A DNA stretch of 64,000 nucleotides from Hoeflea sp. IMCC20628 (GTDB lineage Bacteria > Pseudomonadota > Alphaproteobacteria > Rhizobiales > Rhizobiaceae), in assembly GCF_001011155.1 (NCBI RefSeq), contig NZ_CP011479.1, positions 2,808,501 through 2,872,500 on the forward strand, given 5' to 3'. This document shows, one piece after another, positions 15,021 through 30,340 of this stretch. Positions within the stretch are counted from its first letter, which is position 1. Every line of letters begins with the position of its first letter. Below the pieces are notes generated by a model. It was given only the letters and a program-made list of their open reading frames with translations, searched no databases and was not told the DNA's origin. The position numbers were made by a program, and so were the translations under genes.

Positions 15021-16133
15021 ATGACATTCTTCAATGCCGACGCGCTGCGTCAGGCAATGGCTTCCGCACGCCGTGGCCGTTTCGATCCTGATCGCCTGGT
15101 GCAGGAAACACTGTCCCGTCACGGCCTTTCCTGGGATGGACCGGAGGGCGTGGCCAACACTGCGGCCGATGCCGGTCCGGGTTCGGCCTGGGGTCGGTTG
15201 CCAGGATTTACGTCACCGACCGCCCACGCAGGTCAGGCGTTCGTGAAGCCTGAAACCCGCGTCAGGCCAGACACTCCGGCGAGCGCCGGTTTCACCCAAC
15301 ACCGGTTTGACCACGCTGCCGGTAGCAGGGAGTTCCGGGTCTACCGTCCGGCTTCGGCCAGCAAAGGGCCGACAGGGCTGATTGTCATGCTGCATGGCTG
15401 CACCCAAACGCCCGAGGACTTTGCTGCCGGAACGGCGATGAACGAACAGGCTGAAAAACATGGTTTCGTCGTCGCCTACCCCGCTCAGTCGCGTGGCGCC
15501 AATGCGCAGACCTGCTGGAACTGGTTCAGCCGTGGCGACCAGAATCGCGACCGCGGCGAACCGGCAATCATCGCCGGTCTTACCCGGCAGGTCTGTGAAA
15601 GCCACGATATCCCGTTGGATCGGGTTTTTGTTGCGGGGCTGTCTGCGGGCGGCGCGATGGCCGTCATCATGGGCGAGACCTACCCGGAACTTTATTCCGG
15701 CGTCGCCGTTCACTCCGGCCTGCCGTTCGGAGCAGCGCGCGACGTTGCCTCAGCCTTCGCTGCGATGGGCGGCAAACCAATGGAGGGAAAGGCACGCTCC
15801 ACGATGACCCCACGTACAATCGTGTTTCACGGTACTTCGGACGCTGTTGTCCATCCGGTTAACGGCGATCTGATTGCGCGGGACGCGATGTCGAACGGTA
15901 CCGACACACAGTATCAGACCACCGAGCGCGGCACATTTGGCAGCCGTCAGTTTGAAAAACACACCACTTTCGGATCCCACGGCCAGTCGAGCATCGAGCA
16001 CTGGGTGATCGACGGAATGGGCCATGCCTGGTCCGGCGGTCGAGCTGCGGGATCTTACACCGATCCCGATGGTCCGGATGCCAGCGCCGAGATCGTCCGA
16101 TTTTTCCTGAACCCGCAAGAAGGGAACCGCTAA
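15021..16133 (+). CDS. PHB depolymerase family esterase
   Basis: A 370-residue alpha/beta hydrolase of the Esterase_PHB (LpqC-like) family. The oxyanion region is MLHGCTQTPEDFA, the nucleophile Ser208 lies in GLSAGG, the acid is in GTSDAVVHPVNG and the histidine in GMGHAWSGG. No signal peptide is visible, so it is likely cytoplasmic. About 90 N-terminal residues are low-complexity and poorly ordered before the catalytic domain. The next gene starts 1 nt after its stop, so the two are co-transcribed. Polyhydroxybutyrate is only one possible substrate; feruloyl or other ester substrates fit the family equally. Confidence 0.88.
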   Translation: MTFFNADALRQAMASARRGRFDPDRLVQETLSRHGLSWDGPEGVANTAADAGPGSAWGRLPGFTSPTAHAGQAFVKPETRVRPDTPASAGFTQHRFDHAAGSREFRVYRPASASKGPTGLIVMLHGCTQTPEDFAAGTAMNEQAEKHGFVVAYPAQSRGANAQTCWNWFSRGDQNRDRGEPAIIAGLTRQVCESHDIPLDRVFVAGLSAGGAMAVIMGETYPELYSGVAVHSGLPFGAARDVASAFAAMGGKPMEGKARSTMTPRTIVFHGTSDAVVHPVNGDLIARDAMSNGTDTQYQTTERGTFGSRQFEKHTTFGSHGQSSIEHWVIDGMGHAWSGGRAAGSYTDPDGPDASAEIVRFFLNPQEGNR

Positions 16134-16134
16134 C

Positions 16135-17271
16135 ATGGCCGATGCTTGCTTGAGATTTGACGCAATTAGAGAAGACCTGCCCGGGCCGAAATGGAAGGCC
16201 CGCTGGGATCGCTCATGGCCCGCCTATGAAGGCTGGTTCATCGCCCGAGGCGGCGACAGCGGACCGTCGCGCGCGGACTGTGAAGCAGCGCTGAGCCAAC
16301 ACATGCCCGAGCTCGTTCCCGTGTACAGGCGCCTAGTTGACCTTGCCGGTGGATCGGACCGCGCGGCGCGCTTCCTTTCGACCTGGTGTCCGCCAAACTA
16401 CCTCGGCGGCTGTTCGCTTGTGGCTATGTCAAACCACGACACGGTCCGGCTGGTGCGCAACTATGACCTTTCGCCTAACCTCAATGAGGGGCTTCTGCTC
16501 AAGTCAGCCTGGACGGGCCGAGGCGTGATGGGGATGGTGGAATTCCTCTGGGGCCTGTCCGATGGCATCAATGACGCAGGTCTCAGCATCGCGCTGGCCT
16601 ATGGCGGCCGCCAGGTCACGGGCACCGGCTTCGGCATCACCACGATCCTTCGCTATGTGCTGGAAACCTGCCGGACGGTCGAGGACGCGCTTGCTGTGCT
16701 GCGGCGGGTGCCATCTCATATGCCCTATAATGTCGTTCTGGCCGACGCGTCGGGAACCACTGCCAGCGTCGAGATGCTGGCGGGGGGCGGCATTCAGATT
16801 GTTGCCGACCCTGTGGCGACCAACCACCAGCACGACGGGTCACAGCCCGACCGCGGCCCGTTCACCCGGACATACGAACGTGCGGCCCATCTCAAACGGA
16901 TCGCGGATTCACGCAGGGACCCCAAGGGGCTTGCTGCGGAGTTTTTGAAAGAGCCGTTGCGTCAGGTCAGATATGAAGAGGGCTTCGGCACCTTGTTCAC
17001 AGCGGAGTATGATCCCCTCACCCGTGGCCTGACGCTTCACTGGTCTGACACTGAATGGCGCCAAAGTCTGGACGACTTTACCGAGCGCCAGACCGTCATC
17101 ACCTATGGCGGCAGCGAGCGGTCGATCCAGCTCAATCAGGGTTTGGAACGGGAGATCGACTGGGTGGCAATCGGGATGCGGTATGCTTCAGGCAACGCGC
17201 CCGACTGGCGCGAGTTTGCCACTCCGGGATACGGGTTCGAACCACAGCAGGTCTGCAGCGGCTGCCACTGA
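16135..17271 (+). CDS. C45 family Ntn-hydrolase/acyltransferase-like protein (paralogue 1)
   Basis: A 378-residue member of the C45 (acyl-CoA:6-aminopenicillanate acyltransferase-like) group. Cys93 in YLGGCSLV is the expected autocatalytic cleavage point and nucleophile, followed by VRNYDLSP. The second half has DGINDAGLSIALAYGGR and the VATNHQH loop typical of the family. It is about 55 residues longer than the paralogue at 18652-19623, mostly through a Cys-containing C-terminal tail ending CSGCH. It sits 1 nt after the esterase stop. Family members hydrolyse or transfer amide-linked acyl groups; the substrate here is unknown. Confidence 0.82.
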   Translation: MADACLRFDAIREDLPGPKWKARWDRSWPAYEGWFIARGGDSGPSRADCEAALSQHMPELVPVYRRLVDLAGGSDRAARFLSTWCPPNYLGGCSLVAMSNHDTVRLVRNYDLSPNLNEGLLLKSAWTGRGVMGMVEFLWGLSDGINDAGLSIALAYGGRQVTGTGFGITTILRYVLETCRTVEDALAVLRRVPSHMPYNVVLADASGTTASVEMLAGGGIQIVADPVATNHQHDGSQPDRGPFTRTYERAAHLKRIADSRRDPKGLAAEFLKEPLRQVRYEEGFGTLFTAEYDPLTRGLTLHWSDTEWRQSLDDFTERQTVITYGGSERSIQLNQGLEREIDWVAIGMRYASGNAPDWREFATPGYGFEPQQVCSGCH

Positions 17272-17311
17272 CCTGCTCACCTCCCGGCGCCAACGCGCCG
17301 GGTTGAATGTT

Positions 17312-18637
17312 TCAGACCCCGGTGGCGGCGCGAATGCCGATTGCCAGCTTGTCGATCAGTTCATCGATCTGTTCGGGTGTGATGATGTAGGGCGGCGCCA
17401 GCAGCACGTGGTCGCCGCTGCGGCCATCGATGGTGCCCGACATCGGATAGCAAATCAGGCCGGCATCAAAAGTCGCGGTCTTGATTTTGGGTGCTATACG
17501 GTCGGTGGGCGCGAAGGGTTGCTTGGTCTCGCGATCCTGCACCAGTTCGACGCCGACAAAGAGGCCGCGACCGCGTATGTCGCCGAAATGGGGATGCTGG
17601 CCAAAACGATCCTGCAGGCGGGTTTTGAGCAATTGGCCCATTTCCTCGACCTTCGTCAGTAATTGGCGATTCACGATCGCCCCGACAACGGCAAGCCCCG
17701 CAGCGCAGGCGGCCGGATGGCCCATATAGGTGTGGCCGTGCTGGAAGAAGCCACTGCCGTTCTCGATCGCCTTGTAGATTTCGCCGGAACACAGCATCGC
17801 TCCAAGCGGCTGGTAGCCGCCGCCAAGTCCCTTCGCGATGGCAATGATGTCGGGCCTGACGTCATCCTGCTCGGATGCGAACAGGCTGCCGGTGCGTCCC
17901 ATGCCGCACATCACCTCATCGAGGATCAGCAGAACGCCGTAGCGGTCACAAATTTCGCGAATCCGCTTGAAATAACCCGGTGCTGGCGGCACTGCGCCTG
18001 ATGTGGCCCCGACCACCGGCTCGGCCATGAACGCCATCACCGTTTCAGGACCGACACGAAGAATTTCTGTCTCCAGCGCATTGGCGGCGCGCAGACCATA
18101 GGCCTCCGGCGTTTCATCAGCGTGGCGCAAGCGGTAGTCGTAACAGGGATCGATGTGGCTCACATCCAAGAGCAGCGGGCCGAACTGGGCGCGGCGCCAT
18201 TCATTGCCGCCCGCCGACAGGGCGCCGATGGTGTTGCCGTGATAGCTCTGCTTGCGCGCGATCAATCGGGAGCGGCCGGGCTCGCCCTTCTCTACGAAAT
18301 ATTGCCGGGCGAGCTTGATCGCCGCTTCTGTCGCCTCGGATCCGCCGGAGACGAAATAGACCCGGTCGATCCCTTCGGGCGCTTTCGAAATCAACAGATC
18401 AGCCAAAGTCTCAGCCGGCTCGGATGTGAAAAAGCCGGTATGAGCGAAGGCTATTGCGTCGAGTTGAGCCTTTACTGCATCGATGACATCGGTGTCGCCG
18501 TGTCCAAGGCAGGACACCGCCGCGCCGCCCGATCCGTCAAGATACTGCTTGCCGCTCTGATCAAACAGGTAGCACCCCTTCCCCGAAGCCACGACAGGCG
18601 GGTGAATTTTCGTATGGCGGGAAAAGACATGGCTCAT
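17312..18637 (-). CDS. Class III PLP-dependent aminotransferase
   Basis: A 441-residue fold-type I aminotransferase of the omega-amino acid/amine class. The cofactor region includes SGGSEATEAAIKLAR (98-112), the Asp-Glu pair D240-E241 and the PLP lysine Lys269 in IAIAKGLGGGYQP. The C-terminal APPYIITPEQIDELI is typical. Such enzymes transaminate terminal amines (putrescine, GABA, beta-alanine, taurine). It is the last gene of the minus-strand run and starts 15 nt after the C45 stop, with an AAGGA site, so it is part of the decarboxylase/ligase cluster. An amine product of the decarboxylase is an obvious candidate substrate. Confidence 0.9.
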   Translation of the reverse strand: MSHVFSRHTKIHPPVVASGKGCYLFDQSGKQYLDGSGGAAVSCLGHGDTDVIDAVKAQLDAIAFAHTGFFTSEPAETLADLLISKAPEGIDRVYFVSGGSEATEAAIKLARQYFVEKGEPGRSRLIARKQSYHGNTIGALSAGGNEWRRAQFGPLLLDVSHIDPCYDYRLRHADETPEAYGLRAANALETEILRVGPETVMAFMAEPVVGATSGAVPPAPGYFKRIREICDRYGVLLILDEVMCGMGRTGSLFASEQDDVRPDIIAIAKGLGGGYQPLGAMLCSGEIYKAIENGSGFFQHGHTYMGHPAACAAGLAVVGAIVNRQLLTKVEEMGQLLKTRLQDRFGQHPHFGDIRGRGLFVGVELVQDRETKQPFAPTDRIAPKIKTATFDAGLICYPMSGTIDGRSGDHVLLAPPYIITPEQIDELIDKLAIGIRAATGV

Positions 18638-18651
18638 GGGGTTTGCGCTCC

Positions 18652-19623
18652 TTAGACCGGAATATGAATCATCCGCTGATCTTCAACGAAATTATGGATA
18701 TCGAATGGCCAGGTCCCCAAGGGCCAGCGAAGCTCCATTTGTCCGAGCCGGGGGCGATATATGGCAGTATAGAGCGTGCCAAATCCGTCGGCGAAGGCTG
18801 AGGAATATAGTGGCGGTTTGAGGAAGGCAGAAATGAATTTTTCCTCGGTATCTCTATGCATCGTCATCCGCTGCAGCAGATAGCGCTCGCGCTCGACGGT
18901 CGCAGTGAAGCGGGCATGCGCCGCCCATTCAACCTTTTCCTGATGATTGGTCGCAACTGCCGACTTGGTGATCAGCGTCGGTCTGTCGGGCGCCATATAG
19001 GCGGTGATATAATTCCGTTTCGCGTCCAGCACGGTGACATTGTAGCTCATGTGACTGGGAACGCGGGCCAGAACAGCCGCGGCCTGTTCGGTGGTTTCGC
19101 AGGTCTGCAGCACATAGCGCAGAATGATCGGCACGCCGAAGCCGTCACCGACTACGTGACGGCCGCCGAAGGTCAGGGAAATTGCCAGACCGGCATCGTT
19201 CATACCGTCGACCAGCCCCCAGAGGCCATCAGATGTTCCCAATACCGTGCGCCCCTGCCAGCCGGTGCGCATGATGAGCCGGTCAAAGGCCAGCGGACTG
19301 TAGTCGTAATTGCGCACCAGAACCGGCTCTGCACCGGTCCAGACTGCCTGGGAACAGCCGGACAGATAGGGCGGCGGATTGTAGAGGCTGAGAAAGCGGG
19401 CGGCTTCATCGCCGCCGCCGGCCAGTTCGCAGAGCTGCTCATAGATTACCAGCAGTTCGGGCATGTGGTGCTTCAGCGCCTGATAACACTGCCAGTATGT
19501 CGGCCGCGCTTCGACGCTCTCGCTGCTCCACCAGCGCTTGTAATCCGGCCAGTACTCGGCAAAAAGCCCGGCCCATTTCGGGCCAGGTTCCACTTCATCG
19601 ACTGAACGCCAAAGATGTTGCAT
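18652..19623 (-). CDS. C45 family Ntn-hydrolase/acyltransferase-like protein (paralogue 2)
   Basis: A 323-residue C45 protein, clearly paralogous to 16135-17271. Both have GPKW near the start, HHMPEL/QHMPEL, a GGDEAARFLS-type helix, PPPYLSGCS with the predicted nucleophile Cys90, RNYDYSP, a DGMNDAGLAISLTFGGR block and a VATNHQ loop. The C-terminal extension of paralogue 1 is missing. It lies 21 nt after the ATP-grasp gene and 15 nt before the aminotransferase. In this context it could remove or attach an amide-linked group on the ligase product. Confidence 0.82.
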   Translation of the reverse strand: MQHLWRSVDEVEPGPKWAGLFAEYWPDYKRWWSSESVEARPTYWQCYQALKHHMPELLVIYEQLCELAGGGDEAARFLSLYNPPPYLSGCSQAVWTGAEPVLVRNYDYSPLAFDRLIMRTGWQGRTVLGTSDGLWGLVDGMNDAGLAISLTFGGRHVVGDGFGVPIILRYVLQTCETTEQAAAVLARVPSHMSYNVTVLDAKRNYITAYMAPDRPTLITKSAVATNHQEKVEWAAHARFTATVERERYLLQRMTMHRDTEEKFISAFLKPPLYSSAFADGFGTLYTAIYRPRLGQMELRWPLGTWPFDIHNFVEDQRMIHIPV

Positions 19624-19644
19624 TTGACGTCCATGCTCCGGAGT

Positions 19645-21105
19645 TTAAAGAATCTTGAAGGCCGGCTCTGAAAACACCGGACCGACGTCTGCTGCCGGCA
19701 GCGGCTTTGCCACAAAGCTGTTCTTGATCCCGTGAATCCACTTCTTGGCGCGGTCGTTCAAAACGAAATTGTTCGTCATCGAACGCCCGCGAGTCACCAG
19801 AATGCCGAGGTCGGCGCCTTCATAGCGGTAATCGCCCGGCTTTTGAATACGCAGAAAGAAAGCCTCGTTTTCGCTCTCGACTGCGCGCCGGTGATAATCG
19901 AAGCGGTCGAACACAACGCGTCCGTCATCATGCATCTTGTAGATGCCGGTCTGCGGCGCTTCAGTGATGATGTCGACGCTGTCTTCGGTGTGCTTGACCA
20001 CCATCTGGCTCCAGCTGTCGATCATGTCCGGATCGGCCCAACGCGAATTCAGCTCGGCGATGTCGAGATTGAATTTGACCTTCGAGAAGTCGAGCAGATG
20101 GAACAGGAACAGGGGCGCATCCGCATGGGCAAATGCCGCATGATTGGTCATCGAGCTGGCGCCCGTAATGCGCGGATTGAGTTCGCCGAGCCAGATGTCA
20201 CCGGTTTTGGTGTCGATGAGAAAATCAAGTTCGAAATAACCGCTGTAGCCTTCCTTGCGCAACTGCTCGCCGAACTTGAAGGTGAGCTGCCTGGCCTTCT
20301 CACGCACCTTTTTCGGGAAGGCGGTGGAGAAGATCTCGTTGCCGCACCAGCCACCGCGGTATGGCGTGAGTTCCTTGAAGCCGACAAGCTCGGTCATCAG
20401 TGGCCCGACAATGGTCCCCTTTGACGTGGTGCAGGCTTCGATTGCCGAACCGCGGCAATCGATCCGCTTCATGATCTTGATCTCGCCCTCGCCGATGATC
20501 TCGTCCGCATGGCTGCGGAAATCGGCTTCAGACTTGATGAAAAATGTGGTGTGACCGCTGTCGCCAAAGGCCGACTGCAGAACCAGATCATGCCCGATTC
20601 CGGCCTTGTCGCAGGTTTCGCCCAGGTTTTCATAGGAGGTTACCTCGGCCAGCACGTTCGGCACGGAGGGAACGCCGGCCTTGTTGCCAACCCGCACGGT
20701 CTCGATCTTGTTGTCCATCGAGGTGCGAAGCTTGGCGCTCGGGAACCAGACGACGGCGCCGAGTTCATTGGCCAGACGCTCGGTCTCTTCATCGAACATC
20801 AGGAAGACGAATTTCGGGTTGCCGCCGCGGCGCTTGATGAAGTCGATGACTTCCTTGTGCTGCAGCAGGTAATTGTTGATGTCCTCGATCGACTGAAACT
20901 CGGCATGGGGCTGCTCGGACGGGCAGAACACGTTCGGATGGCGGCCGTCATAGCAATCGAGGTAGCAGATGTATTTGAAGTTCTTGCACCACTCGTCAAT
21001 GCCGAGCAGGTTGAAGTTGGTCGCGGAAATGAAATAGATCGGGTCTTCGTTCCGGTGAAAGAACCGGCGGATTTCCGACATGTTTTTCAGCATTTTCTTC
21101 GGCAT
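19645..21105 (-). CDS. ATP-grasp ligase (biotin carboxylase-like)
   Basis: A 486-residue ATP-grasp enzyme. A unique N-terminal domain of about 115 residues is followed by the ATP-grasp core: the SMDNKIETVRVGNKAGVPS entry, a KIMKRIDCRGSAIEA strand, and the metal/phosphate segment GYFELDFLID...WLGELNPRITGASSM with the acidic pair and Asn-Pro-Arg. It lacks the biotin carboxylase C-domain and any carboxyl-carrier, so it more likely forms an amide bond (acyl-phosphate plus amine) than carboxylates biotin. The frame is open far upstream, but ATG at 21105 lies 1 nt after the decarboxylase stop and has an AAGGGGA site, so the long extension is not coding. Partner substrates are unknown. Confidence 0.82.
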   Translation of the reverse strand: MPKKMLKNMSEIRRFFHRNEDPIYFISATNFNLLGIDEWCKNFKYICYLDCYDGRHPNVFCPSEQPHAEFQSIEDINNYLLQHKEVIDFIKRRGGNPKFVFLMFDEETERLANELGAVVWFPSAKLRTSMDNKIETVRVGNKAGVPSVPNVLAEVTSYENLGETCDKAGIGHDLVLQSAFGDSGHTTFFIKSEADFRSHADEIIGEGEIKIMKRIDCRGSAIEACTTSKGTIVGPLMTELVGFKELTPYRGGWCGNEIFSTAFPKKVREKARQLTFKFGEQLRKEGYSGYFELDFLIDTKTGDIWLGELNPRITGASSMTNHAAFAHADAPLFLFHLLDFSKVKFNLDIAELNSRWADPDMIDSWSQMVVKHTEDSVDIITEAPQTGIYKMHDDGRVVFDRFDYHRRAVESENEAFFLRIQKPGDYRYEGADLGILVTRGRSMTNNFVLNDRAKKWIHGIKNSFVAKPLPAADVGPVFSEPAFKIL

Positions 21106-21106
21106 C

Positions 21107-23857
21107 TTAGTCCCCTTTTTTATTTTTTGGTTTTGCCAAGGCGAGCCCGGCATGATTGTCCAGGGCTGCCTGAGTGAACACGCGCAGGCCCAGGTCCGGC
21201 CGGTATCCATGGATTTCACTGACATCGAGCGCGCGCATGAAGGCCAGAATCTCTCGCGACACCACCTGCCCCGGCACCAGAATCGGAAACCCGGGCGGAT
21301 AAGGGATGATGAAGGAGGCTGATACGATCTCGCGGCCGCTTTCGATCGCGTCGATGATCGAACCGTCGAGCTCGAGATAATCGCAGTTCTTGTCATCGTA
21401 GCTGAGAAAGAATGCCGACCTGATGTCACCTTCGATGGTGTCGTTGTCTGTGCGGAAGGCATCATGGAACCGGCTGAAATCGGGCAGTGGCGGCAAGTCA
21501 TGCATGAGGTTTTTGACGCGTTTTTCGAAACTCAGGCGCTCCATGCGCGATGCATCGTCAAGCAGGTCGTCAAGGTCGTTGGCGATTTCAACCAGCACCT
21601 CGATCAGGTAGGCAACGGACGACCGCGTGGTGCCGATATTGGTCATGAACAGGACAGTGTTGCGCGACGTCTTGTTGATCTGGATGCCGTATTTGTCCAT
21701 CAGGATCTTGTTCTTGAAAGTGTCGCCGTCCCAGCCGGTGCCGCCGACCACAACTGTCACGCGGGTCGCATCGAGAACAAACTCGTCTTTCTCCCAGCAA
21801 TTCCAGATGTCGGTCCAGCCCTGATCCGGCTCGTAGTAACTGGTGACGCCGCTCTCGCGGTGGGTTTCCGGAATCATATCGCCGGCTGTCAGAACCTTGA
21901 AATATTTCTGCAGCACCGGGTGTGTCGAAATCGCCCGGCGCATCGACATGGCCGCCTCGACCTGGCGTTGAACGAATTCGAACCCCTCCAGTTCCACCTG
22001 CCGCCGGCCGACATCCAGCGAGGCTATGATCTGGTAATTTGGCGAGGTTGACGTGTGCGTCATGTAGGCTTCATGAAAGCTCTGCTCGACCTCCCCCTTG
22101 AAGTCCTGATCGTTGACATGAATCATCGATCCCTGCCGCAAGGATGTCAGCGTCTTGTGGGTCGATTGGGTCGAATAGACCCGGATCCGTGAACTCGGTG
22201 GTGGCAGCAAACGCGTCTTGAGCAGCGTCTCGTCATCCGCATCCTTGAGTTTGGCCTGCTGCTTTTCGTAGAGCTTGGCGTATTGCGGCGTCTTGATCTT
22301 CTCCCGCAGGGTCTTGGCGGCGTTCATTCCGGTGCGCTGACGGTAGGTCGGGCCAAAACGGGCAAAGGCGAACCACGCCTCGTCCCAGAGGAAGACCAGA
22401 TCGGACTTGATGGCGAGGCATTCCTCCATCACCCGCTCGACATTGTAGACAATGCCGTCAAACGTGCAGTTGGTCAGAAGCAGCATTCTGACGCGGTCGA
22501 GCTTTCCGGCCGCCTTCAATTTCAGCAACTGGTGCTTGATTTCCTTCAGCGGTACCGCGCCATACATCGAGTATTCATTCAGCGGATAGCTGTCGAGATA
22601 GACCACCTGGGCGCCGGCCAGGACCATCCCGTAGTGATGGGATTTGTGGCAGTCACGATCGACCAGCACGATATCACCGGGCCGCACCAGAGCCTGGACG
22701 ACGATCTTGTTGCAGGTCGATGTGCCATTGGTGGAAAAGAACGTCTGCTTGGCGCCAAAAGCCCGCGCCGCGAGTTCCTGCGCTTCCTTGATCGGCCCAT
22801 GCGGCTCAAGCAGGCTGTCGAGTCCGCCACTGGTGGCTGAGGTCTCGGCCATGAAAATATTGGGGCCGTAAAAAGCGCCCATATCCTGGATCCAGTGCGA
22901 CCGGGAGATCGATTTGCCGCGGCTGATCGGCATGGCGTGGAAAACGCCGGTCGGCTGTTTCGAGTATTCCTTCAGGGCGGTGAAGAATGGTGTCTTGTAG
23001 CGCGCCTGAACACCACGAAGGATGTTGAGGTGCAGCTCCATGAAGTCTTCCTGATTGTAGAAGACACGGCGACAGATGCCGAGATCGAGACCAGCAATGG
23101 CTTCAACCGAGCGGTCGGTCACCAGATAGGCGTCAAGTTCGGGGCGAACTTTCGCGATCAGACGGCAAAGCTCAGGGCCATAGTCCTCCGGCGCGATCTC
23201 TTCAATTTCATCGATGCCGCCGGCACGGTTGAGGTAGCGGGTCAGGATCGGCAGTTCGACCTTGGATTCGAGCTTCAGACCGGGGCGGACGATGATGGCC
23301 TGAATGTTATGGTTGAACAGAATGCCTATGAGCGCGTCCTGAAGACTTGGAACGACCACCGATTCATAGGTGAACTGGTCATCCGCGCGGCGCATGGATT
23401 GAAGACTGTTCTTCAGCCAGCGCTCCTGGTGCTCGTTGAGGTCATCAACAATCATGACCTCGAAATAGGGTTTGGTCAGCGCCCGTGCTTCCGGCGACAG
23501 TACGGCCTCGTCTTCGTTCTCCTCGGCATCGACCACATCCCGGTCGAGCGGAATGTGACGGCGGCGATAGGCGCCGGTCGTCAGAGCGCGAAGCACGCGG
23601 CGGACGCTGAACGCAGCATCATCGACGTTTCCGTGATCGAACTGGCGTTGCATGTGGTTGAATGCCGAAACACCGGGAAAGGCCCAATAGGCTTCAATGA
23701 GCGACAGCGACTCGAATAGTTCGTTGATCTTTGCCCGCGTCGCCTTGGCCTTGCGGCCATCAGGCTCGCGTTTGAGAAAGTCCAGTGCTTCGCGCAAGGC
23801 ACTCCATCGATCTGTCCGAAGTTGAACCGCAGAGTAGTAATCGCTCATTGATTGCAT
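21107..23857 (-). CDS. Orn/Lys/Arg decarboxylase, large form with N-terminal extension
   Basis: A 916-residue PLP-dependent basic amino acid decarboxylase of fold type I. Residues of about 125-250 form the receiver-like wing domain beginning EVMIVDDLNEHQ. The catalytic domain follows, with the SATSGGLDSLL and FFSTNGTSTCNKIV motifs, DRDCHKSHH, and the PLP lysine Lys568 in STHKTLTSLRQ. The C-terminal domain contains TGWDGDTFKNKILMDKYGIQINKTS. An extra ~120 residues precede the wing domain, making it longer than AdiA, CadA or SpeC. The ATG at 23857 has an AAGGA site. It is 1 nt upstream of the ATP-grasp gene, so a decarboxylated amine may be handed to the ligase. Specificity (Arg, Lys or Orn) cannot be read from sequence. 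Confidence 0.88.
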   Translation of the reverse strand: MQSMSDYYSAVQLRTDRWSALREALDFLKREPDGRKAKATRAKINELFESLSLIEAYWAFPGVSAFNHMQRQFDHGNVDDAAFSVRRVLRALTTGAYRRRHIPLDRDVVDAEENEDEAVLSPEARALTKPYFEVMIVDDLNEHQERWLKNSLQSMRRADDQFTYESVVVPSLQDALIGILFNHNIQAIIVRPGLKLESKVELPILTRYLNRAGGIDEIEEIAPEDYGPELCRLIAKVRPELDAYLVTDRSVEAIAGLDLGICRRVFYNQEDFMELHLNILRGVQARYKTPFFTALKEYSKQPTGVFHAMPISRGKSISRSHWIQDMGAFYGPNIFMAETSATSGGLDSLLEPHGPIKEAQELAARAFGAKQTFFSTNGTSTCNKIVVQALVRPGDIVLVDRDCHKSHHYGMVLAGAQVVYLDSYPLNEYSMYGAVPLKEIKHQLLKLKAAGKLDRVRMLLLTNCTFDGIVYNVERVMEECLAIKSDLVFLWDEAWFAFARFGPTYRQRTGMNAAKTLREKIKTPQYAKLYEKQQAKLKDADDETLLKTRLLPPPSSRIRVYSTQSTHKTLTSLRQGSMIHVNDQDFKGEVEQSFHEAYMTHTSTSPNYQIIASLDVGRRQVELEGFEFVQRQVEAAMSMRRAISTHPVLQKYFKVLTAGDMIPETHRESGVTSYYEPDQGWTDIWNCWEKDEFVLDATRVTVVVGGTGWDGDTFKNKILMDKYGIQINKTSRNTVLFMTNIGTTRSSVAYLIEVLVEIANDLDDLLDDASRMERLSFEKRVKNLMHDLPPLPDFSRFHDAFRTDNDTIEGDIRSAFFLSYDDKNCDYLELDGSIIDAIESGREIVSASFIIPYPPGFPILVPGQVVSREILAFMRALDVSEIHGYRPDLGLRVFTQAALDNHAGLALAKPKNKKGD

Positions 23858-23930
23858 CAATTTTTCCTTTTCGGTTACACAATCTTCTGCAAGATCTCCG
23901 TTTTTTCGTCGTTTCTTGATCCCGTATGCT

Positions 23931-24911
23931 TCAGCCTGCTACCGTCTTGCCGGCAGCCATCGGTAATCCTGTTGCCGGGGTAGCTTCCGATGCCGGCAAC
24001 GGTGGAAGCGGGGCAACACCTGCCGGGAGAGCGGATGGCGGTAGACCGGCCTTCGATCCCTGCCCCGGGGTTTCGAGCGGGCCGAGGCTGTGCAGATATG
24101 CATCAACGCCGCTGGCCCGGTCGTAAACAGGAAAATCGACGGCGCGGTCCCGGAAACTCTTGAGCACCTGACCCAGCCCCATGAACCCGGTTTCGCGCTG
24201 GCGTCGGACCTGGTCGAGGTCAATTTCGACAGGGAACATATCCTCACCCGCCATTGAGCGATGCAGGATCGTCGCCGAGGGAGACACCACACAGGATTGA
24301 CCTATGCCACCAGCGCCCAGGCCGTTGATGTCGAAGATATAACACTGGAATTGCGCGGCGGTGGCTTGTGCAATCGCGATCTCGGTCGATCGGTCAATGG
24401 TGCCAGTCAGCACCGGGTGGATGAGGACTTCGACTCCCATGCTGGTCAAATGGCGCGTCGTTTCCGGGAACCAGATATCGTAGCAGATCGAGAGACCAAA
24501 GCGGCCAACACCGGGCACATCAAAGACACAGAATTCAGTGCCTCCGGCAATTCCTGCTTCATAGGGCAGGAAGGGAAACATCTTTCGATAATGCGAGACG
24601 ATCTCGCCTTGCGGATTGATCACCGTGGAGGTGTTGTAGATCAGTCCATCGTCGGCCTGTTCGAACATCGACCCGGGGATCACCCAGACATTATACCTGC
24701 GCGCTGCTGCCTGAAACCGTTCGATGGTTTCGTTGAGAAGCGGTTGCGCAAATCGCGACAGCGGCCCGAATGACGCCAGTTCGCTGAACACCACCATCTG
24801 GGTCCAGGGAAACCGGGCCATGACCACGTCGAGCTTGTGCAACATGGTTTCGACATTGGGTTCAACGGCATTGACATACATCTGGATGCCGGCAATTGCG
24901 AAAGGTGTCAT
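23931..24911 (-). CDS. Carbon-nitrogen hydrolase (nitrilase superfamily)
   Basis: A 326-residue nitrilase-superfamily amidase. The catalytic triad is visible: Glu44 (VFSELASFG), Lys110 (HYRKMFPF) and Cys143 (SICYDIWFPE). The C-terminal 45 residues are Pro/Ala-rich and probably disordered, an unusual tail for the family. It lies 73 nt upstream of the decarboxylase on the same strand. Family members include N-carbamoylputrescine amidase and other amidases of polyamine routes, which would suit the neighbouring decarboxylase. No clear Shine-Dalgarno precedes the ATG at 24911. Confidence 0.88.
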   Translation of the reverse strand: MTPFAIAGIQMYVNAVEPNVETMLHKLDVVMARFPWTQMVVFSELASFGPLSRFAQPLLNETIERFQAAARRYNVWVIPGSMFEQADDGLIYNTSTVINPQGEIVSHYRKMFPFLPYEAGIAGGTEFCVFDVPGVGRFGLSICYDIWFPETTRHLTSMGVEVLIHPVLTGTIDRSTEIAIAQATAAQFQCYIFDINGLGAGGIGQSCVVSPSATILHRSMAGEDMFPVEIDLDQVRRQRETGFMGLGQVLKSFRDRAVDFPVYDRASGVDAYLHSLGPLETPGQGSKAGLPPSALPAGVAPLPPLPASEATPATGLPMAAGKTVAG

Positions 24912-24981
24912 AGGGGGGCGAACTCCGTGGATCTTTTTCCAGGTCTAGTTCCGCAGGATCGCGGTTGAGGCTCCGGCTTGG

Positions 24982-25413
24982 TTAGTTTCTGACGATCAGG
25001 ACCGAAACGGGCGAACGACGCACCACCCGGTCGGCCTGCGAACCGACCAGAAATTCACGCACCCGATCCGGAGAATGGCTGGCCATGACCACCAGGTCCG
25101 CGTGATAGGTATCAATCGCCTTGAGGACTTCCGTGTGCACGACCCCATGAGCCAGATGAACATGGGTTTCGATTGAGTTGTCGATATTGTCTTCGACAAT
25201 CGAGCTGAGCTGTGAATTGGCTTCCGTGAGCGCATGGGTTTCGAAACCCTCCTGCAGGAAACCGGCGACCAGCGGTGACCGGATGTTGGGCACCACCGAC
25301 AACACGTGCAGCACACCGCCACCGGCCTTAGCCAGCGCTACCGCTTCGGGCAGAGCAAGTTCCCATGATGGCTTATGCGTCAGATCGATGGTGACAAGGA
25401 TCGTCTTGTACAT
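24982..25413 (-). CDS. Universal stress protein (UspA family)
   Basis: A 143-residue single Usp domain. It has the N-terminal KTILVTIDLTHKPSWE strand-loop and the C-terminal SPVSVLIVR strand. The nucleotide loop, normally G-x2-G-x9-G-S/T, reads A-S-H-S-x9-G-S, so both early glycines are replaced and ATP binding may be weak. It follows the TRAP permease gene by 20 nt with an AGGAG site. Usp proteins encoded with TRAP transporters are known (TeaD regulates TeaABC), so it probably modulates this importer. Confidence 0.88.
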   Translation of the reverse strand: MYKTILVTIDLTHKPSWELALPEAVALAKAGGGVLHVLSVVPNIRSPLVAGFLQEGFETHALTEANSQLSSIVEDNIDNSIETHVHLAHGVVHTEVLKAIDTYHADLVVMASHSPDRVREFLVGSQADRVVRRSPVSVLIVRN

Positions 25414-25433
25414 ATCAATTCTCCTGGTTCAGT

Positions 25434-28187
25434 TTATGCAGCCGCGGTTGAAACAAACCGCGGCGACCGGCGCCGCTGCAACATCACGACCATGGCCAAG
25501 AGCAGAAGGGCAGGAATGAACATCCAGTATTTGCTGGGCACGTCGACAGGCTTGAGCACCCGCAAAACCTGCTGATCCCAATCCAGACCGGCGGACGATG
25601 CCGACGAGCCGAAAGCGACATCGTCGATGAACATCTTGTCGCCGTCCTGGCGGAAGGTGAGCCCGGCATTGGCCAGCTTTTCTTCCCCTGTCGCGCCCTC
25701 CCCGATGGGAAGCAAGGCAACAAACTCGATCGGATCGCCGAGATCATTGACGCCCGCAACCCGTACCCGCAAGGAGTCGCCACTGGCCGTACCTGCCGCA
25801 GCCTCGGTGATTTCAGCAGGGTCCTTCTCCAGATAGGGCGGAAAGATCATGTCCATGAAAAATCCGGGCCGGAACAGGGTGAAGGCAACCAGCAACAGGA
25901 TTGCGGATTCATAAATGCGGTTGCGAACCAGGAACCATCCTTGGGTGGCGGCAGCAAATAGCAACATCGCCACCGTCGCTATACAGAAGACGAATATCCC
26001 CTGCACCCATGTCACATTGATCAACAGAAGTTCGGTGTTGAAGATGAACAGGAACGGCAATGCGGCGGTACGCAGGCTGTAGAAGAAGGCAATCACGCCG
26101 GTCTTGATCGGATCGCCTCCCGAGACTGCGGCCGCAGCAAAACTTGCCAGACCGACCGGCGGGGTCACATCAGCCATGATGCCGAAGTAGAACACGAACA
26201 GATGAACCGCGATCAATGGCACAATCAGGCCATTCTGCTGTCCGAGCGTGACAATCACCGGCGCCAGCAGGGCCGATACGACGATGTAATTGGCTGTCGT
26301 CGGCAGACCCATCCCCAGGATCAGCGACAGGATTGCGGTGAGGAACAGGATTGCCATGATGTGGCCGCCCGAGAGAACTTCGACGACATCTGCAAGCGAT
26401 GACCCGACACCGGTCTGGCTCACCGTTCCGACAATGATGCCGGCGGTTGCAGTGGCGATGCCGATACCGATCATGTTGCGGGCACCAGTTACCAGTCCGT
26501 CAATGAGGTCGTTCCACCCCTGACGGACCGCATTTCCGATCTGGCTACTGCCGCGGAACATGGCCATCAATGGCCGCTGGGTCAGAAGAATGAACACCAT
26601 GTAGGAGGTGGCCCAGAAGGCTGACAGACCCGGAGAGAGGCGGTCCACCATCAGCGCCCAAACAAGAACTACCACCGGAAGAATGTAGTGCAGGCCCGAG
26701 CGGACCGTTGGTCCGGGCAATGGCAATTTGGTCACTGCCGCATTCGGATCATCCAGTTCAAGCGGCTCCTCCTTGGAGGCAACGCGGACCAAAGCGACAT
26801 AAGCGGACGAAATCAGCACAAAAACGATATAGGGAGCGGCAACCGGGAACGCCGGGCGCAGCCAGCCCATACCGTAATAGACGGCAAACGAGACCGCACA
26901 GATTGCGGCGATAGTAAAGGCGATACCGATCAGGCGCTGGACGATGGGTTTCGGGGTGTAAGCACGAGGCAACCCCTCCATGCCCGCCTTCATCGCTTCA
27001 AGATGCACGATATAGACCAGCGCGATGTAGGAGATCACTGCAGGAAGAAACGCGTGCTTGACGACGTCGAAATAGGGAATGCCGACATATTCAACCATCA
27101 GGAAGGCCGCGGCCCCCATGACAGGCGGCATGATCTGGCCGTTCACAGAAGATGCGACTTCAACCGCACCGGCTTTTTCAGCGGAGAATCCGACCTTCTT
27201 CATCAGCGGGATGGTGAATGTGCCTGTCGTCACCACATTGGCGATGGACGAGCCCGAAATCAGGCCGGTCATTGCAGATGAAACGACGGCTGCCTTTGCA
27301 GGTCCGCCACGCATATGCCCCATCAGGCTGAAGGCCACCTGGATGAAATAATTGCCTGCGCCGGCGCGGTCGAGCAACGAGCCGAACAGAACGAAGAGAA
27401 ACACGAACGACGTCGAGACACCCAGCGCGATGCCGAAGACACCTTCGGTGGTGATCCACTGATGGTTGACGATCTCGGAGAGATTGTTGCCCTTGTGGGC
27501 AATGATGTCGGGCATGTAGGGCCCGAGGACGGTATAGGCCAGGAAAAACGAAGCGACGATCATCAGCGCGGCGCCCAGTGACCGGCGGGTTGCTTCCAGC
27601 AACAGCAGAATGCCAATCACCGCAACCACGAAATCCTGGATGATCGGCGCGCCAACGCGGCTCGAGATGTCACGGTAGAAGAAATAGAGATAAAGAGCCG
27701 CCATGGCGCCGATGGCAGCCATTGCCCATTCCCAGGGTGGAATCCGGTCTCTTGCTGACCCGAGATAGACCGCGCCCGACACGGCCAGCGCCACAATCGG
27801 AATCCACCAGACAGGCGTGGCATCCTTCGACGACCACATGAACAGGGCTGCAAGGATCAGCGGTACCGCCATTCCGAGTCCGAGTTGAAATTTGGTCCGG
27901 TCCGCAGGAAACGCCGCAAAGGCGAGAAAAATGGCAAACGCCAGATGAATGGAGCGGGCTTCGGTGTCATTGAAGACGCCAAATCCGATCACGAAAGGAA
28001 TGGGAGAGGCAAACCAGAGCTGAAACAGTGACCAGAACAGGGCGACAAGCATGATAAACTTGCCCACTGCACCATGCGTGCCTCGCGCACCGGTATCGGA
28101 CGAGGCGACAAGCGCGTCCAGCTCCGATTGAGAGAGCCCGTGCTGGGCAGCGTCTGCTGATGTCTGCGGGTTGTTATTGTCTGCCAT
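25434..28187 (-). CDS. TRAP transporter fused permease (TAXI type, 4TM+12TM)
   Basis: A 917-residue integral membrane protein that fuses the small (DctQ-like) and large (DctM-like) TRAP subunits, as is usual for TAXI systems. About 20 hydrophobic helices are visible. The DctM core includes GGPAKAAVVSSAMTGLISGSS and GLPTTANYIVVSALLAPV. A soluble extracytoplasmic insert of about 110 residues lies near the C-terminus (GTASGDSLRVRVAGVND... to SKYW) before a last helix; this tail region is common in this fused family. The start at ATG 28187 has a GAGGGGG site; upstream in-frame codons are not needed. It imports a solute using a Na+ or H+ gradient. Confidence 0.92.
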   Translation of the reverse strand: MADNNNPQTSADAAQHGLSQSELDALVASSDTGARGTHGAVGKFIMLVALFWSLFQLWFASPIPFVIGFGVFNDTEARSIHLAFAIFLAFAAFPADRTKFQLGLGMAVPLILAALFMWSSKDATPVWWIPIVALAVSGAVYLGSARDRIPPWEWAMAAIGAMAALYLYFFYRDISSRVGAPIIQDFVVAVIGILLLLEATRRSLGAALMIVASFFLAYTVLGPYMPDIIAHKGNNLSEIVNHQWITTEGVFGIALGVSTSFVFLFVLFGSLLDRAGAGNYFIQVAFSLMGHMRGGPAKAAVVSSAMTGLISGSSIANVVTTGTFTIPLMKKVGFSAEKAGAVEVASSVNGQIMPPVMGAAAFLMVEYVGIPYFDVVKHAFLPAVISYIALVYIVHLEAMKAGMEGLPRAYTPKPIVQRLIGIAFTIAAICAVSFAVYYGMGWLRPAFPVAAPYIVFVLISSAYVALVRVASKEEPLELDDPNAAVTKLPLPGPTVRSGLHYILPVVVLVWALMVDRLSPGLSAFWATSYMVFILLTQRPLMAMFRGSSQIGNAVRQGWNDLIDGLVTGARNMIGIGIATATAGIIVGTVSQTGVGSSLADVVEVLSGGHIMAILFLTAILSLILGMGLPTTANYIVVSALLAPVIVTLGQQNGLIVPLIAVHLFVFYFGIMADVTPPVGLASFAAAAVSGGDPIKTGVIAFFYSLRTAALPFLFIFNTELLLINVTWVQGIFVFCIATVAMLLFAAATQGWFLVRNRIYESAILLLVAFTLFRPGFFMDMIFPPYLEKDPAEITEAAAGTASGDSLRVRVAGVNDLGDPIEFVALLPIGEGATGEEKLANAGLTFRQDGDKMFIDDVAFGSSASSAGLDWDQQVLRVLKPVDVPSKYWMFIPALLLLAMVVMLQRRRSPRFVSTAAA

Positions 28188-28247
28188 GAAATCCCCCTCG
28201 CCGCCCGATTCCGGGTCGATCACCTGTCCACTTTGGAACATATTTTG

Positions 28248-28284: not shown

Positions 28285-28320
28285 TTCAGGCTACTGACTT
28301 TGACAAGTCAGCAGTGCGGA

Positions 28321-29280
28321 TCACATCCAGCCGCGTTCCTTGTAGTACTTCACAGCACCGGGATGAAGCGGTGCGGACAGACCACCGGAGATCATGTCCT
28401 CTTCCTTGAGGTTGGCAAATGCCGGGTGCAGACCCTTGAAGCGATCGAAGTTGTCAAACACAGCCTTGACGACCTGGTAGACAACATCGTCATCGACATC
28501 GGCAGAGGTGACGAATGTCGCCTTCACGCCAAATGTTTCAACATCGTCGGGCGTGCCGGGATACATGCCGCCGGGAACTGTTGCCTTGGCATAAAAGGCA
28601 TTGTCGGCGACCAGCTTGTCGATAGCTTCTCCGGTGACGGGCACCAGCTTGGCTTCGACAGTCGAGGTTGCTTCCTGGATCGAACCATTGGGATGTCCTA
28701 CGGTGTAGATGATCGCGTCAACCTTGTTGTCGCCAAGTGCTGCGGCCTGTTCAGCTGGCTTCAATTCCGAAGCAAGCGCGAAATCATCCATGGTCCAGCC
28801 TTTTGCCGCCAGCACCACTTCCATGGTTGCGAGCTGACCGGAACCGGGGTTGCCGACATTGACGCGCTTGCCCTTGAGGTCATCAAAGTTTTCAATTCCC
28901 GAATCTGCACGGGCAATAACCGTGAACGGCTCGCCATGGACGGAGAACACCGCACGAAGCTTGTCGACCTTGTTGCCTTCAAACTTGGAAGTGCCGTTAT
29001 AGGCATGGTACTGCCAATCGGACTGGGCCACGCCCATGTCCATATCGCCGGCAGCAATGGCGTTGATGTTGGCAATCGAACCACCGGTGGAAGGAGCTGT
29101 GCATTTGAGGTTGTGCTCGGCTGCGCCACGGTTGACGAGACGGCAAATCGACTGGCCGACCACGTAATAAACGCCGGTCTGACCGCCTGTGCCAATGGTT
29201 ATGAACTTATCCTCGGCCACGGAAGGCGAAATCGCCATCGCCATCGCGCTCGCCAAGATCAGGTTTCTCACATGTTTCAT
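28321..29280 (-). CDS. TAXI family TRAP solute-binding receptor
   Basis: A 319-residue periplasmic receptor. Residues 1-22 are a signal peptide (cleavage near SVA-ED). The family motif ITIGTGGQTGVYYVVGQSICR is at 27-47, followed by STGGSIANINAIAAGDMDMGVAQSDW. The C-terminal HPGAVKYYKERGW is typical. A GGGAG site precedes the ATG at 29280. It is the first gene of the minus-strand transporter operon, divergent from the XRE-cupin regulator. TAXI receptors often bind glutamate-like or other carboxylated ligands; the ligand here is unknown. Confidence 0.93.
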   Translation of the reverse strand: MKHVRNLILASAMAMAISPSVAEDKFITIGTGGQTGVYYVVGQSICRLVNRGAAEHNLKCTAPSTGGSIANINAIAAGDMDMGVAQSDWQYHAYNGTSKFEGNKVDKLRAVFSVHGEPFTVIARADSGIENFDDLKGKRVNVGNPGSGQLATMEVVLAAKGWTMDDFALASELKPAEQAAALGDNKVDAIIYTVGHPNGSIQEATSTVEAKLVPVTGEAIDKLVADNAFYAKATVPGGMYPGTPDDVETFGVKATFVTSADVDDDVVYQVVKAVFDNFDRFKGLHPAFANLKEEDMISGGLSAPLHPGAVKYYKERGWM

Positions 29281-29743: not shown

Positions 29744-30340
29744 ATGTCAGCAGCACATGAACCGGAATTGAACATCGGCCAGCGTTTGAAAGCTGTACGG
29801 ACTGCACAGAAAATGTCGCAACGGGAACTGGCGCGCAAATCCGGTGTAACCAACGGAATGATTTCGCAAATCGAGGGAAACTCCACCAGTCCCAGCGTCT
29901 CGTCGCTGAAGCGGATTCTCGACGCGATTCCGATGAGCATGTCCGATTTCTTTTCCAACGAAACACACAATGCAAAGCAGGTCTTCTTCCGTGCCGGAGA
30001 ATTGCGTGAGCTCAATCCCAATGCAATTATTGCGAAAGACAGCGGTGACGTGAACAGCCTTTCGTTGCGCCAGGTGGGGAACAGCCGCAATTCGGCAATC
30101 CAGATGCTGTACGAACGCTACGCTCCGGGAAGTCACACCGGAGCGGACCTCTACAGTCATAATGGCGAAGAGGCGGGGATTGTCATTTCAGGGACCATAG
30201 AGGTGACTGTCGGTGATCAGACTGCGACACTTGGGGCGGGAGATGCCTATTTGTTCGAAAGCCGGGAACCGCATCGGTTTCACAACAGCAGCGATGATGA
30301 ATGCATTGTCGTCAGCGCCTGCACGCCACCGTCGTTCTGA
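29744..30340 (+). CDS. XRE-family regulator with C-terminal cupin (PuuR-like)
   Basis: A 198-residue two-domain regulator. Residues 10-65 form an XRE helix-turn-helix (RLKAVRTAQKMSQRELARKSGVTNGMISQIE). Residues of about 120-190 form a cupin_2 domain (GADLYSHNGEEAGIVISG...LGAGDAYLFESREPHRFHN), which should sense a small ligand. The architecture matches PuuR, the putrescine-responsive repressor, and other regulators of amine and amino acid catabolism. It is divergent from the TAXI-TRAP operon and 35 nt upstream of the BKACE gene, so it likely controls both. An amine or carboxylate inducer is inferred from the domain type and neighbours. Confidence 0.9.
   Translation: MSAAHEPELNIGQRLKAVRTAQKMSQRELARKSGVTNGMISQIEGNSTSPSVSSLKRILDAIPMSMSDFFSNETHNAKQVFFRAGELRELNPNAIIAKDSGDVNSLSLRQVGNSRNSAIQMLYERYAPGSHTGADLYSHNGEEAGIVISGTIEVTVGDQTATLGAGDAYLFESREPHRFHNSSDDECIVVSACTPPSF

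What the first reader, a model, noticed from the sequence alone, without database searches (positions are those of the whole stretch)
17312..24911. Five-gene operon: amidase, basic amino acid decarboxylase, ATP-grasp ligase, C45 Ntn-hydrolase and aminotransferase
The genes lie on one strand with gaps of 1 to 73 nt, so they almost certainly act together. Decarboxylase plus ATP-grasp suggests making an amine and joining it to a carboxylate. The C45 protein and the nitrilase-type amidase suggest cleavage or exchange of amide bonds, and the aminotransferase suggests further use of a terminal amine. I know no described pathway with exactly this set. It could make or degrade an amide-linked polyamine compound (a small non-ribosomal metabolite, storage or signalling molecule). 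The functional reading is inference; the gene adjacency is seen.
Basis: partly seen in the sequence, partly recalled or inferred. Interest (0 to 1): 0.8.

Follow-up and report, generated by a model that had tools for sequence, protein, structure and literature searches.

The report
Conserved glutamate–GABA amide gene cluster
A four-gene unit shared by many unrelated Proteobacteria appears to handle glutamate and its breakdown product GABA through an unusual decarboxylase plus enzymes that make and break amide bonds; its function is inferred from gene context and has not been tested.

Summary
The operon is real, but its limits differ from the finding. In the window it is an eight-gene unit: TAXI binding protein, TRAP permease, Usp, nitrilase-type amidase, OKR-fold decarboxylase (DC), ATP-grasp (ATPG), C45 and class III aminotransferase. 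Across genomes the core is four genes, amidase-DC-ATPG-C45: in the best 80 of 569 database loci, DC is present in 76/76, C45 in 76/76 and amidase in 74/75 eligible loci, while the aminotransferase is directly downstream in 18/74.

"Basic amino acid decarboxylase" is probably wrong. All 108 ATPG-linked DC rows examined (105 distinct) have Gln where classical enzymes have the proposed amine-binding Glu, plus a new Arg after the PLP lysine. Relatives without ATPG sit beside aspartate/alanine antiporters. The importer's binding protein matches the glutamate-specific VcGluP. GABA aminotransferase lies within 12 kb of ATPG in at least 9 of 37 fetched cluster genomes. In six loci whose operon lacks DC, amidase-ATPG-C45 accompany an arginine-to-GABA pathway.

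Best reading: Glu is decarboxylated to GABA; ATPG, C45 and amidase make and break a GABA-containing amide. All substrates are inferred; the ligation partner is unknown. My searches of the held library found no paper on this set.

The parts
23931..24911 (-). nitrilase-type amidase (AMD), core gene 1
   Evidence: PF00795 112.7 bits; only hits far below the curated cut-offs, e.g. formamidase 71.8 of 406; nearest PDB formamidase 5g3o 61.9 bits; present in 74/75 eligible loci
21107..23857 (-). divergent OKR-fold PLP decarboxylase (DC), core gene 2 (start ATG 23857 or 23848)
   Evidence: PF01276 264.8 bits; 848 bits to PDB 9n0o; PLP Lys/Asp/Trp kept, PGHxGG lost, Ser to Arg, PGE to PGQ
19645..21105 (-). 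ATP-grasp ligase (ATPG), core gene 3
   Evidence: NF005096 768.5 bits; AF2 pLDDT 88.8; Foldseek best PurK/biotin carboxylase/GAR synthetase; E-x-N-x-R kept, biotin carboxylase QVEH absent
18652..19623 (-). C45 Ntn-type autoproteolytic amide hydrolase/acyltransferase, core gene 4
   Evidence: NF040521 183.8 bits; Gly89-Cys90 and R104-N105-x-D107 invariant in 19 rows; AF2 pLDDT 93.2, Foldseek best isopenicillin N acyltransferase 2x1c
17312..18637 (-). class III aminotransferase (PRK07483 type), accessory
   Evidence: NF005685 752.9 bits; directly downstream in 18/74 eligible loci, anywhere in 20/68 full loci
24982..25413 (-). universal stress protein, accessory
   Evidence: PF00582 81.3 bits
25434..28241 (-). 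TRAP fused permease, accessory
   Evidence: TIGR02123 657 bits; TRAP upstream in 40/71 eligible loci
28321..29280 (-). TAXI solute-binding protein, predicted L-glutamate receptor
   Evidence: TIGR02122 365.1 bits; 417 bits to 8s4j, the glutamate-specific VcGluP
29744..30340 (+). XRE-cupin regulator, PuuR-like, divergent
   Evidence: NF007408 PuuR 139.9 bits, below cut-off 211; homologue in 23/68 full loci
16135..17271 (+). second C45 protein, convergent, 43-44% identical to the core C45
   Evidence: NF040521 148.9 bits; identity; not a recent tandem copy in the tree, groups on a long branch with C45s of second ATPG-C45 pairs

Best explanation
A conserved four-gene glutamate/GABA module. The TAXI-TRAP system imports L-glutamate (inferred from close homology). 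DC, an OKR-fold decarboxylase whose active site seems to have changed from basic to acidic substrates, converts L-glutamate (or a close relative) to GABA and CO2 (inferred). ATPG uses ATP to join GABA to a second molecule by an amide bond. C45 and the nitrilase-type amidase cleave amide bonds of that product or its precursors, so GABA is held in, and released from, an amide form (chemistry class inferred from families; partner unknown). GABA leaves through GABA aminotransferase and succinate-semialdehyde dehydrogenase, sometimes encoded next door and in this genome elsewhere. Shown: gene order, conservation, family membership, changed DC residues, clustering with gabT. Inferred: every substrate.
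For: Core conservation: DC 76/76, C45 76/76, AMD 74/75 eligible loci; shuffled order AMD-ATPG-C45-DC in L144-L146. DC: Gln for Glu 108/108, Arg for Ser 108/108, Arg at the PGHxGG site 107/108 rows (105 distinct), against Glu, Ser and Gly in classical rows. DC relatives without ATPG beside AspT and, in two of three, AspD. TAXI protein 417 bits to VcGluP with the two key ligand residues kept; a C. sphaeroides TAXI is needed for sodium-dependent growth on L-Glu (PMC12632250 passages). gabT within 12 kb of ATPG in 9 genomes of the 21 searched; the 21 were the own genome and 20 of 37 fetched cluster genomes and deliberately held the 7 where gabT had already been seen, so the fair figure is at least 9 of 37. 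gabT 25/68, FMN-binding glutamate synthase family 19/68 full loci; SSADH beside DC in L196 (715 bits over 646). AMD-ATPG-C45 without DC in the operon, in arginine-to-GABA operons: L045, L046, L206, L208, L210 and, in another arrangement, L192. Own genome has gabT next to SSADH at C1:3051554-3054297.
Against: No activity of any DC of this clade is known to me; the review passages I read say the study of Rv2531c did not clarify its activity. The residue argument rests on a docking result and a proposal for Glu526 (PMC5607190 passages). Two Gammaproteobacterial clusters sit inside an ectoine-degradation operon, which GABA does not explain. SpeB-type ureohydrolases near DC in L112, L153 (curated model) and L154 (homology) point to arginine/agmatine. 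In Roseateles sp. XES5, one of the arginine-type cases, another DC lies elsewhere on the same plasmid, near arginase and ornithine cyclodeaminase genes (L006); for the other five such loci the rest of the genome was not searched for DC. Loci without DC also occur outside arginine operons (L156, L199-L201, L207, L209, L211). gabT is missing from 43 of 68 full loci and lies about 220 kb away here. Absence of canonical GAD in 21 cluster genomes is uninformative: base rate 1 of 142. ATPG partner unknown.
Confidence: 0.4

Rival explanations
1. Carrier version: ATPG first joins the side-chain carboxylate of glutamate to an amine, DC decarboxylates this gamma-glutamyl amide to a GABA amide, and C45 or the amidase then release GABA or trim the product. 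Similar in logic to the side-chain steps of butirosin biosynthesis (recalled).
For: DC has lost the proposed amine-binding Glu and gained Gln/Arg, which suits an amide as well as a carboxylate; ligase, decarboxylase and amide hydrolases form one closed set, which in 17 of 68 full loci has none of the TAXI, SBP5a-type or gabT neighbours tested.
Against: In the arginine-to-GABA operons ATPG and C45 occur without DC, and DC occurs without ATPG beside AspT.
Confidence: 0.2
2. One reading: a basic amino acid decarboxylase makes a diamine or agmatine, which the ATP-grasp joins to a carboxylate to form an amide-linked polyamine metabolite.
For: OKR family membership; SpeB-type ureohydrolases near DC in L112, L153 and L154; the unlinked DC of Roseateles sp. 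XES5 near arginase.
Against: Changed DC residues in all 108 rows sampled; acidic amino acid antiporters beside relatives; glutamate-type TAXI.
Confidence: 0.15
3. Puu-like protected route: ATPG acylates putrescine or a related diamine, an aminotransferase and a dehydrogenase oxidise the free end, and C45 hydrolyses the protected GABA.
For: PuuR-like regulator, gabT clustering, class III aminotransferase beside the cluster here and beside ATPG in L156.
Against: The window-type aminotransferase is found in 20 of 68 full loci and no oxidase or dehydrogenase is core; the TAXI importer resembles a glutamate receptor.
Confidence: 0.12
4. The shared metabolite is arginine or 4-guanidinobutyrate/4-guanidinobutyramide rather than GABA; the nitrilase-type amidase hydrolyses the amide on the way to GABA.
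For: Arginine operons around AMD-ATPG-C45; SpeB neighbours; arginase near the unlinked DC of L006.
Against: Does not explain the glutamate importer, glutamate synthase, glutamate dehydrogenase and AspT neighbours.
Confidence: 0.1

Closest known systems
Rv2531c of M. tuberculosis (PDB 9n0n/9n0o/9n0p), 'probable amino acid decarboxylase'
   Same: 848 bits over residues 10-897, same three changed active-site positions in the printed alignment
   Different: activity unknown (PMC12910592 passages); the context of its gene was not examined here
Classical OKR decarboxylases (AdiA, LdcI, SpeF types)
   Same: family, PLP lysine, Asp and Trp
   Different: PGHxGG, Ser and PGE motifs replaced; about 900 instead of about 690-760 residues
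Puu pathway (PuuA ligase, PuuD hydrolase, PuuR; recalled)
   Same: logic of amide formation and hydrolysis around GABA; a PuuR-like regulator
   Different: the ligase is ATP-grasp, the hydrolase is C45, there is a decarboxylase and no PuuB/PuuC in the unit
MfnA/MfnD of methanofuran synthesis (recalled)
   Same: decarboxylase plus ATP-grasp amide ligase
   Different: tyrosine and tyramine chemistry, no C45 or nitrilase; no sequence comparison made
C45 family: isopenicillin N acyltransferase; insect Tan (Tan recalled)
   Same: fold and Gly-Cys site; Tan cleaves beta-alanyl amides, one carbon shorter than GABA (recalled)
   Different: 14% identity to 2x1c in the model comparison; substrate unknown
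VcGluP TAXI glutamate receptor (8s4j)
   Same: 417 bits; Y45, Q93, S75, H123, E125 and Y200 conserved, read by me off the printed alignment
   Different: D157 to Q, M201 to T, S40 to G

Membership tests
Classical basic amino acid (OKR) decarboxylases | PLP lysine in S-x-H-K, aligned Asp and Trp | tested here: met
   108/108 rows
Classical basic amino acid (OKR) decarboxylases | PGHxGG motif | tested here: not met
   P-I-S/A-R-G type; Arg in 107/108 ATPG-type and 3/3 AspT-type rows against Gly in 3 classical rows, of which L002 and L003 are the same gene
Classical basic amino acid (OKR) decarboxylases | Glu of PGE, proposed to bind the substrate (LdcI Glu526, PMC5607190 passages) | tested here: not met
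   Gln in 108/108 rows; Glu in AdiA- and LdcI-type PDB sequences and in the paralogue of the same genome
Classical basic amino acid (OKR) decarboxylases | activity on Orn, Lys or Arg | not testable with these tools
   needs an enzyme assay
Biotin carboxylase (the NCBIfam name of ATPG) | E-x-N-x-R metal/ATP site (role recalled) | tested here: met
   E308, N310, R312 invariant in 19 rows
Biotin carboxylase (the NCBIfam name of ATPG) | Q-V-E-H with catalytic Glu (role recalled) | tested here: not met
   T-G-A-S-type sequence in the 9 of 19 ATPG rows printed, QVEH in 3 of 3 biotin carboxylases aligned, which had been picked by that motif
C45 autoproteolytic family | curated family score and Gly-Cys cleavage site | tested here: met
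   183.8 bits over cut-off 85; G89-C90 invariant in 19 rows
C45 autoproteolytic family | self-cleavage and amide activity | not testable with these tools
   needs protein
Puu pathway | glutamine-synthetase-like PuuA, PuuB oxidase, PuuC (recalled) | tested here: not met
   the ligase is ATP-grasp; family scans of the eight genes of 17312-29280 show no PuuA/PuuB/PuuC
TAXI glutamate receptors | TIGR02122 and the VcGluP Tyr45/Gln93 equivalents | tested here: met
   365.1 bits; Tyr and Gln kept in the alignment
Canonical glutamate decarboxylase GadB | TIGR01788 above cut-off | tested here: not met
   no match over the cut-off in the window's genome or 20 other cluster genomes, 6 of 21 with weaker matches; DC matches OKR families instead

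The most novel reading that the evidence does not exclude
The DC clade, including M. tuberculosis Rv2531c, is a previously unrecognised class of acidic amino acid (glutamate or gamma-glutamyl) decarboxylases in the fold of basic amino acid decarboxylases. In many Proteobacteria it works with an ATP-grasp ligase, a C45 enzyme and a nitrilase-type amidase in an undescribed GABA-amide cycle.
Probability: 0.3. Interest if true: 0.78.

Novelty: new variant of a known kind. Interest (0 to 1): 0.64.

Why it matters
It groups four poorly annotated protein families ('biotin carboxylase' NF005096, 'C45 peptidase', 'Orn/Lys/Arg decarboxylase', 'carbon-nitrogen hydrolase') into one functional unit and gives a testable substrate class (glutamate/GABA). 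It suggests that part of what databases call basic amino acid decarboxylase is mis-annotated, including a solved mycobacterial enzyme of unknown activity. The cluster also occurs on plasmids of nodule rhizobia, where arginine catabolism, with labelled 4-guanidinobutanoate and GABA, has been linked to nitrogen fixation (PMC7268258 passages).

Tried and rejected
Basic amino acid decarboxylation as first choice: lowered after the residue survey. Biotin carboxylase function for ATPG: rejected, QVEH missing. Absence of canonical GAD as evidence: dropped, base rate 1 of 142. Five-gene operon as the conserved unit: replaced by four genes. Tandem duplication of the two window C45 genes: not supported by the tree, though C45b is on a long branch. 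RNA elements: none at gathering scores in 16000-30500. Promoter-like sites 10 against 5.3 (sd 2.0) in shuffles, terminator-like 13 against 12.2 (sd 3.5): not used. Literature: one search found no paper; 101 (two) and 115 (one) listed unrelated papers; one gave 20 of 48 papers, none of which looked relevant from the listing. S. meliloti SMa0680/SMa0682 papers (passages) concern decarboxylase genes that I did not match to DC.

The DC survey kept only frames of 600 aa or more that hold all three search motifs: 108 ATPG-linked rows, 105 distinct, three genomes being held twice; loci with broken or cut DC frames (such as L044, L048, L059, L085, L108, L162, L163) are not in it. The gabT search was given the own genome and 20 of 37 fetched cluster genomes, including the 7 where gabT had been seen. 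A first regex survey failed and one missed rows; searches replaced them.
Full report
What is there. In transcription order they are a nitrilase-type amidase (AMD), an OKR-fold decarboxylase (DC), an ATP-grasp protein (ATPG), a C45 protein and a class III aminotransferase. Gaps are 73 (or 82), 1, 21 and 14 nt, depending on the DC start. On the same strand upstream lie Usp, a fused TRAP permease and a TAXI binding protein, with gaps of 70, 20 and 79 nt; a PuuR-like regulator is divergent. The unit is therefore better drawn as eight genes, 29280 to 17312. A second C45 gene lies convergent at 16135-17271.

What is conserved. Counting only loci whose contig reaches far enough, DC is present in 76/76, C45 in 76/76 and AMD in 74/75; L121 is the one miss. 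TRAP is upstream in 40/71 and the window-type aminotransferase is directly downstream in 18/74. So the core is four genes. In a second set of 20 loci from 17 genomes DC is in 9, C45 in 18 and AMD in 13. Gene order differs: AMD-DC-ATPG-C45 in the Alphaproteobacterial loci, AMD-ATPG-C45-DC in L144-L146. Partial sets exist: ATPG with C45 only (L207, L209, L211), ATPG with AMD only (L199, L200), ATPG with an aminotransferase only (L156). ATPG is patchy: 11 of 398 phylum genomes at E 1e-40, 5 of 199 family genomes, with 0 of 2 other genomes of the window's genus, 11 of 199 order genomes at E 1e-60, the window's own genome counted in each, and 9 of 321 genomes of the class of G442.

Likely transfer. 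The window proteins are closest to Rhodobacterales (ATPG 88% to Pseudorhodobacter aquimaris), while the ATPGs of Rhizobium leguminosarum and Sinorhizobium meliloti plasmids are 47-60% and those of Shinella and Sinorhizobium sp. RAC02 plasmids 65% identical (full-length or nearly full-length matches). A Pseudorhodobacter plasmid (L040) has the same order of regulator, TAXI, TRAP, Usp, AMD, DC, ATPG and C45, with the aminotransferase on the other strand. Horizontal acquisition by the window's lineage is an inference.

The decarboxylase is not a classical basic one. It is a close relative of M. tuberculosis Rv2531c (848 bits, PDB 9n0o); the review passages I read say the structural study did not clarify its activity (PMC12910592), and that study itself was not held. 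The PLP lysine, Asp and Trp are kept. Three positions differ from classical enzymes: the PGHxGG motif is replaced and carries Arg (107/108 ATPG-linked rows), a Ser shortly after the PLP lysine is Arg (108/108), and the Glu of PGE is Gln (108/108). The 108 rows are 105 distinct sequences, all from loci with ATPG; frames under 600 aa were left out. The three classical rows used as contrast, two of which (L002, L003) are the same gene of this genome, have Gly, Ser and Glu; the AdiA- and LdcI-type PDB sequences printed also have PGH, Ser and PGE. That Glu has been proposed to bind the substrate (PMC5607190 passages). Relatives of DC without ATPG (L007, L008, L041), with the same three changes, sit beside aspartate-alanine antiporters; L008 and L041 also have aspartate 4-decarboxylase; the antiporter and decarboxylase of L008 score above their curated cut-offs. 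I read this as a change to an acidic or amide substrate; it is inference, not assay.

Glutamate and GABA around it. The TAXI protein's best PDB match is VcGluP, 417 bits, a glutamate-specific receptor (PMC11574862 passages; PDB code also in PMC12344293). Reading its ligand residues off the printed alignment, Tyr45, Gln93, Ser75, His123, Glu125 and Tyr200 are kept, while Asp157, Met201 and Ser40 differ. In Cereibacter sphaeroides a TAXI system is needed for sodium-dependent growth on L-glutamate (PMC12632250 passages). The R. ponti gabT exceeds the curated GABA aminotransferase cut-off (542.8 over 506.65). In 21 cluster genomes this gabT finds 19 matches in 16 genomes at E 1e-100; 9 of them lie within 12 kb of ATPG in genomes of 3.6 to 6.6 Mb (G154, G691, G1280, G1077, G1254, G1331, G195, G814, G1183). 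The 21 were the window's genome and 20 of 37 genomes fetched, and I had put in the 7 where gabT had already been seen; the fair statement is at least 9 of 37, still far more than one or two gabT genes per genome would give by chance. In 68 full loci, gabT is present in 25, an FMN-binding glutamate synthase family gene in 19 and TAXI in 39. An SSADH above cut-off adjoins DC in L196. A glutamate-dehydrogenase-like gene (448.8 bits, below its cut-off) lies near DC in a rhizobial plasmid. The window's genome keeps gabT and SSADH together about 220 kb away. Canonical GAD is not found above its cut-off in any of the 21 genomes, but that is uninformative because only 1 of 142 class genomes has it.

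The same trio in arginine-to-GABA operons. In Shinella and Roseateles sp. XES5 plasmids ATPG and C45 sit between the ketoarginine/4-guanidinobutyrate genes and D-amino acid dehydrogenase and racemase genes, with AMD and an Lrp regulator next door. The same order recurs in L206, L208 and L210, and a different arrangement AMD-ATPG-C45-permease-SpeB-ketoarginine decarboxylase-ALDH-DadA-racemase in L192. The curated models agree for the decarboxylase (737 over 500), DadA (473.5 over 383) and SpeB (212.3 over 174.3) of L045. DC is absent from these six operons; in Roseateles sp. XES5, however, a DC lies elsewhere on the same plasmid near arginase and ornithine cyclodeaminase genes (L006), and I did not search the other five genomes for one. 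The simplest common metabolite of the DC and arginine versions is GABA.

Structures. AF2 models are good (ATPG pLDDT 88.8, C45 93.2). ATPG matches PurK, biotin carboxylase and GAR synthetase; it keeps E-x-N-x-R but lacks QVEH of the three biotin carboxylases aligned with it, so it is better read as an acid-amine ligase. C45 matches isopenicillin N acyltransferase, then NAAA and acid ceramidase; the Gly-Cys site and R-N-x-D are invariant in 19 rows, including the second window C45.

Mechanism I commit to. Glutamate in, GABA by DC, GABA amide by ATPG, release by C45 and/or the amidase, and carbon to succinate by GabT and SSADH. Shown: gene set, conservation, residue changes, clustering. Inferred: all substrates and the direction. 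Main strains on the model: two clusters inside an ectoine-degradation operon (L144, L145; DoeB 491.4 over 402.7 in L144), SpeB genes near DC in L112 and L153 (curated model) and L154 (homology), the unlinked DC of L006 near arginase, and 17 of 68 full loci with none of the TAXI, SBP5a-type or gabT neighbours tested.

Novelty. Searches of the held full-text library showed no paper describing this gene set; most subscription papers are not in that library. The families are known; the combination and the proposed decarboxylase specificity appear new.

Noticed in passing
16135-17271 (+): Second C45 gene with the catalytic residues kept, convergent to the operon; in the tree it groups (long branch) with C45s of second ATPG-C45 pairs in another family of the same order, not with the core C45.
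   Followed up: partly
15021-16133 (+): An esterase-like ORF (PHB-depolymerase-like by eye, no family scan made) lies directly before the second C45 gene with a gap of 1 nt.
   Followed up: no
L144 and L145: The whole quartet is inserted in an ectoine-degradation (doe) gene cluster between DoeB/Lrp and the SSADH/aminotransferase genes in two genera of one family.
   Followed up: partly
L043, L047, L048, L044: On plasmids of Trifolium nodule rhizobia (L043, L047, L048) the cluster lies near a Nif11-type RiPP precursor with radical SAM maturases; in L044 (Vavilovia isolate) it lies beside nifHDKEN.
   Followed up: no
L045:15785-17572: 'Alanine racemase' of the arginine operon is a fusion of a racemase N-domain with an arginase-family domain.
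   Followed up: no
L007, L008, L041: DC relatives without ATPG sit with AspT antiporters (L008 and L041 also with aspartate 4-decarboxylase; L041 with an HdeA/HdeB-family chaperone), which looks like an acid-resistance locus.
   Followed up: partly
L006: Roseateles sp. XES5 carries a DC (56% identical) without ATPG beside it, near an ABC amino acid-type transporter, hutH, arginase and ornithine cyclodeaminase genes, on the plasmid that also holds the arginine-type cluster.
   Followed up: no
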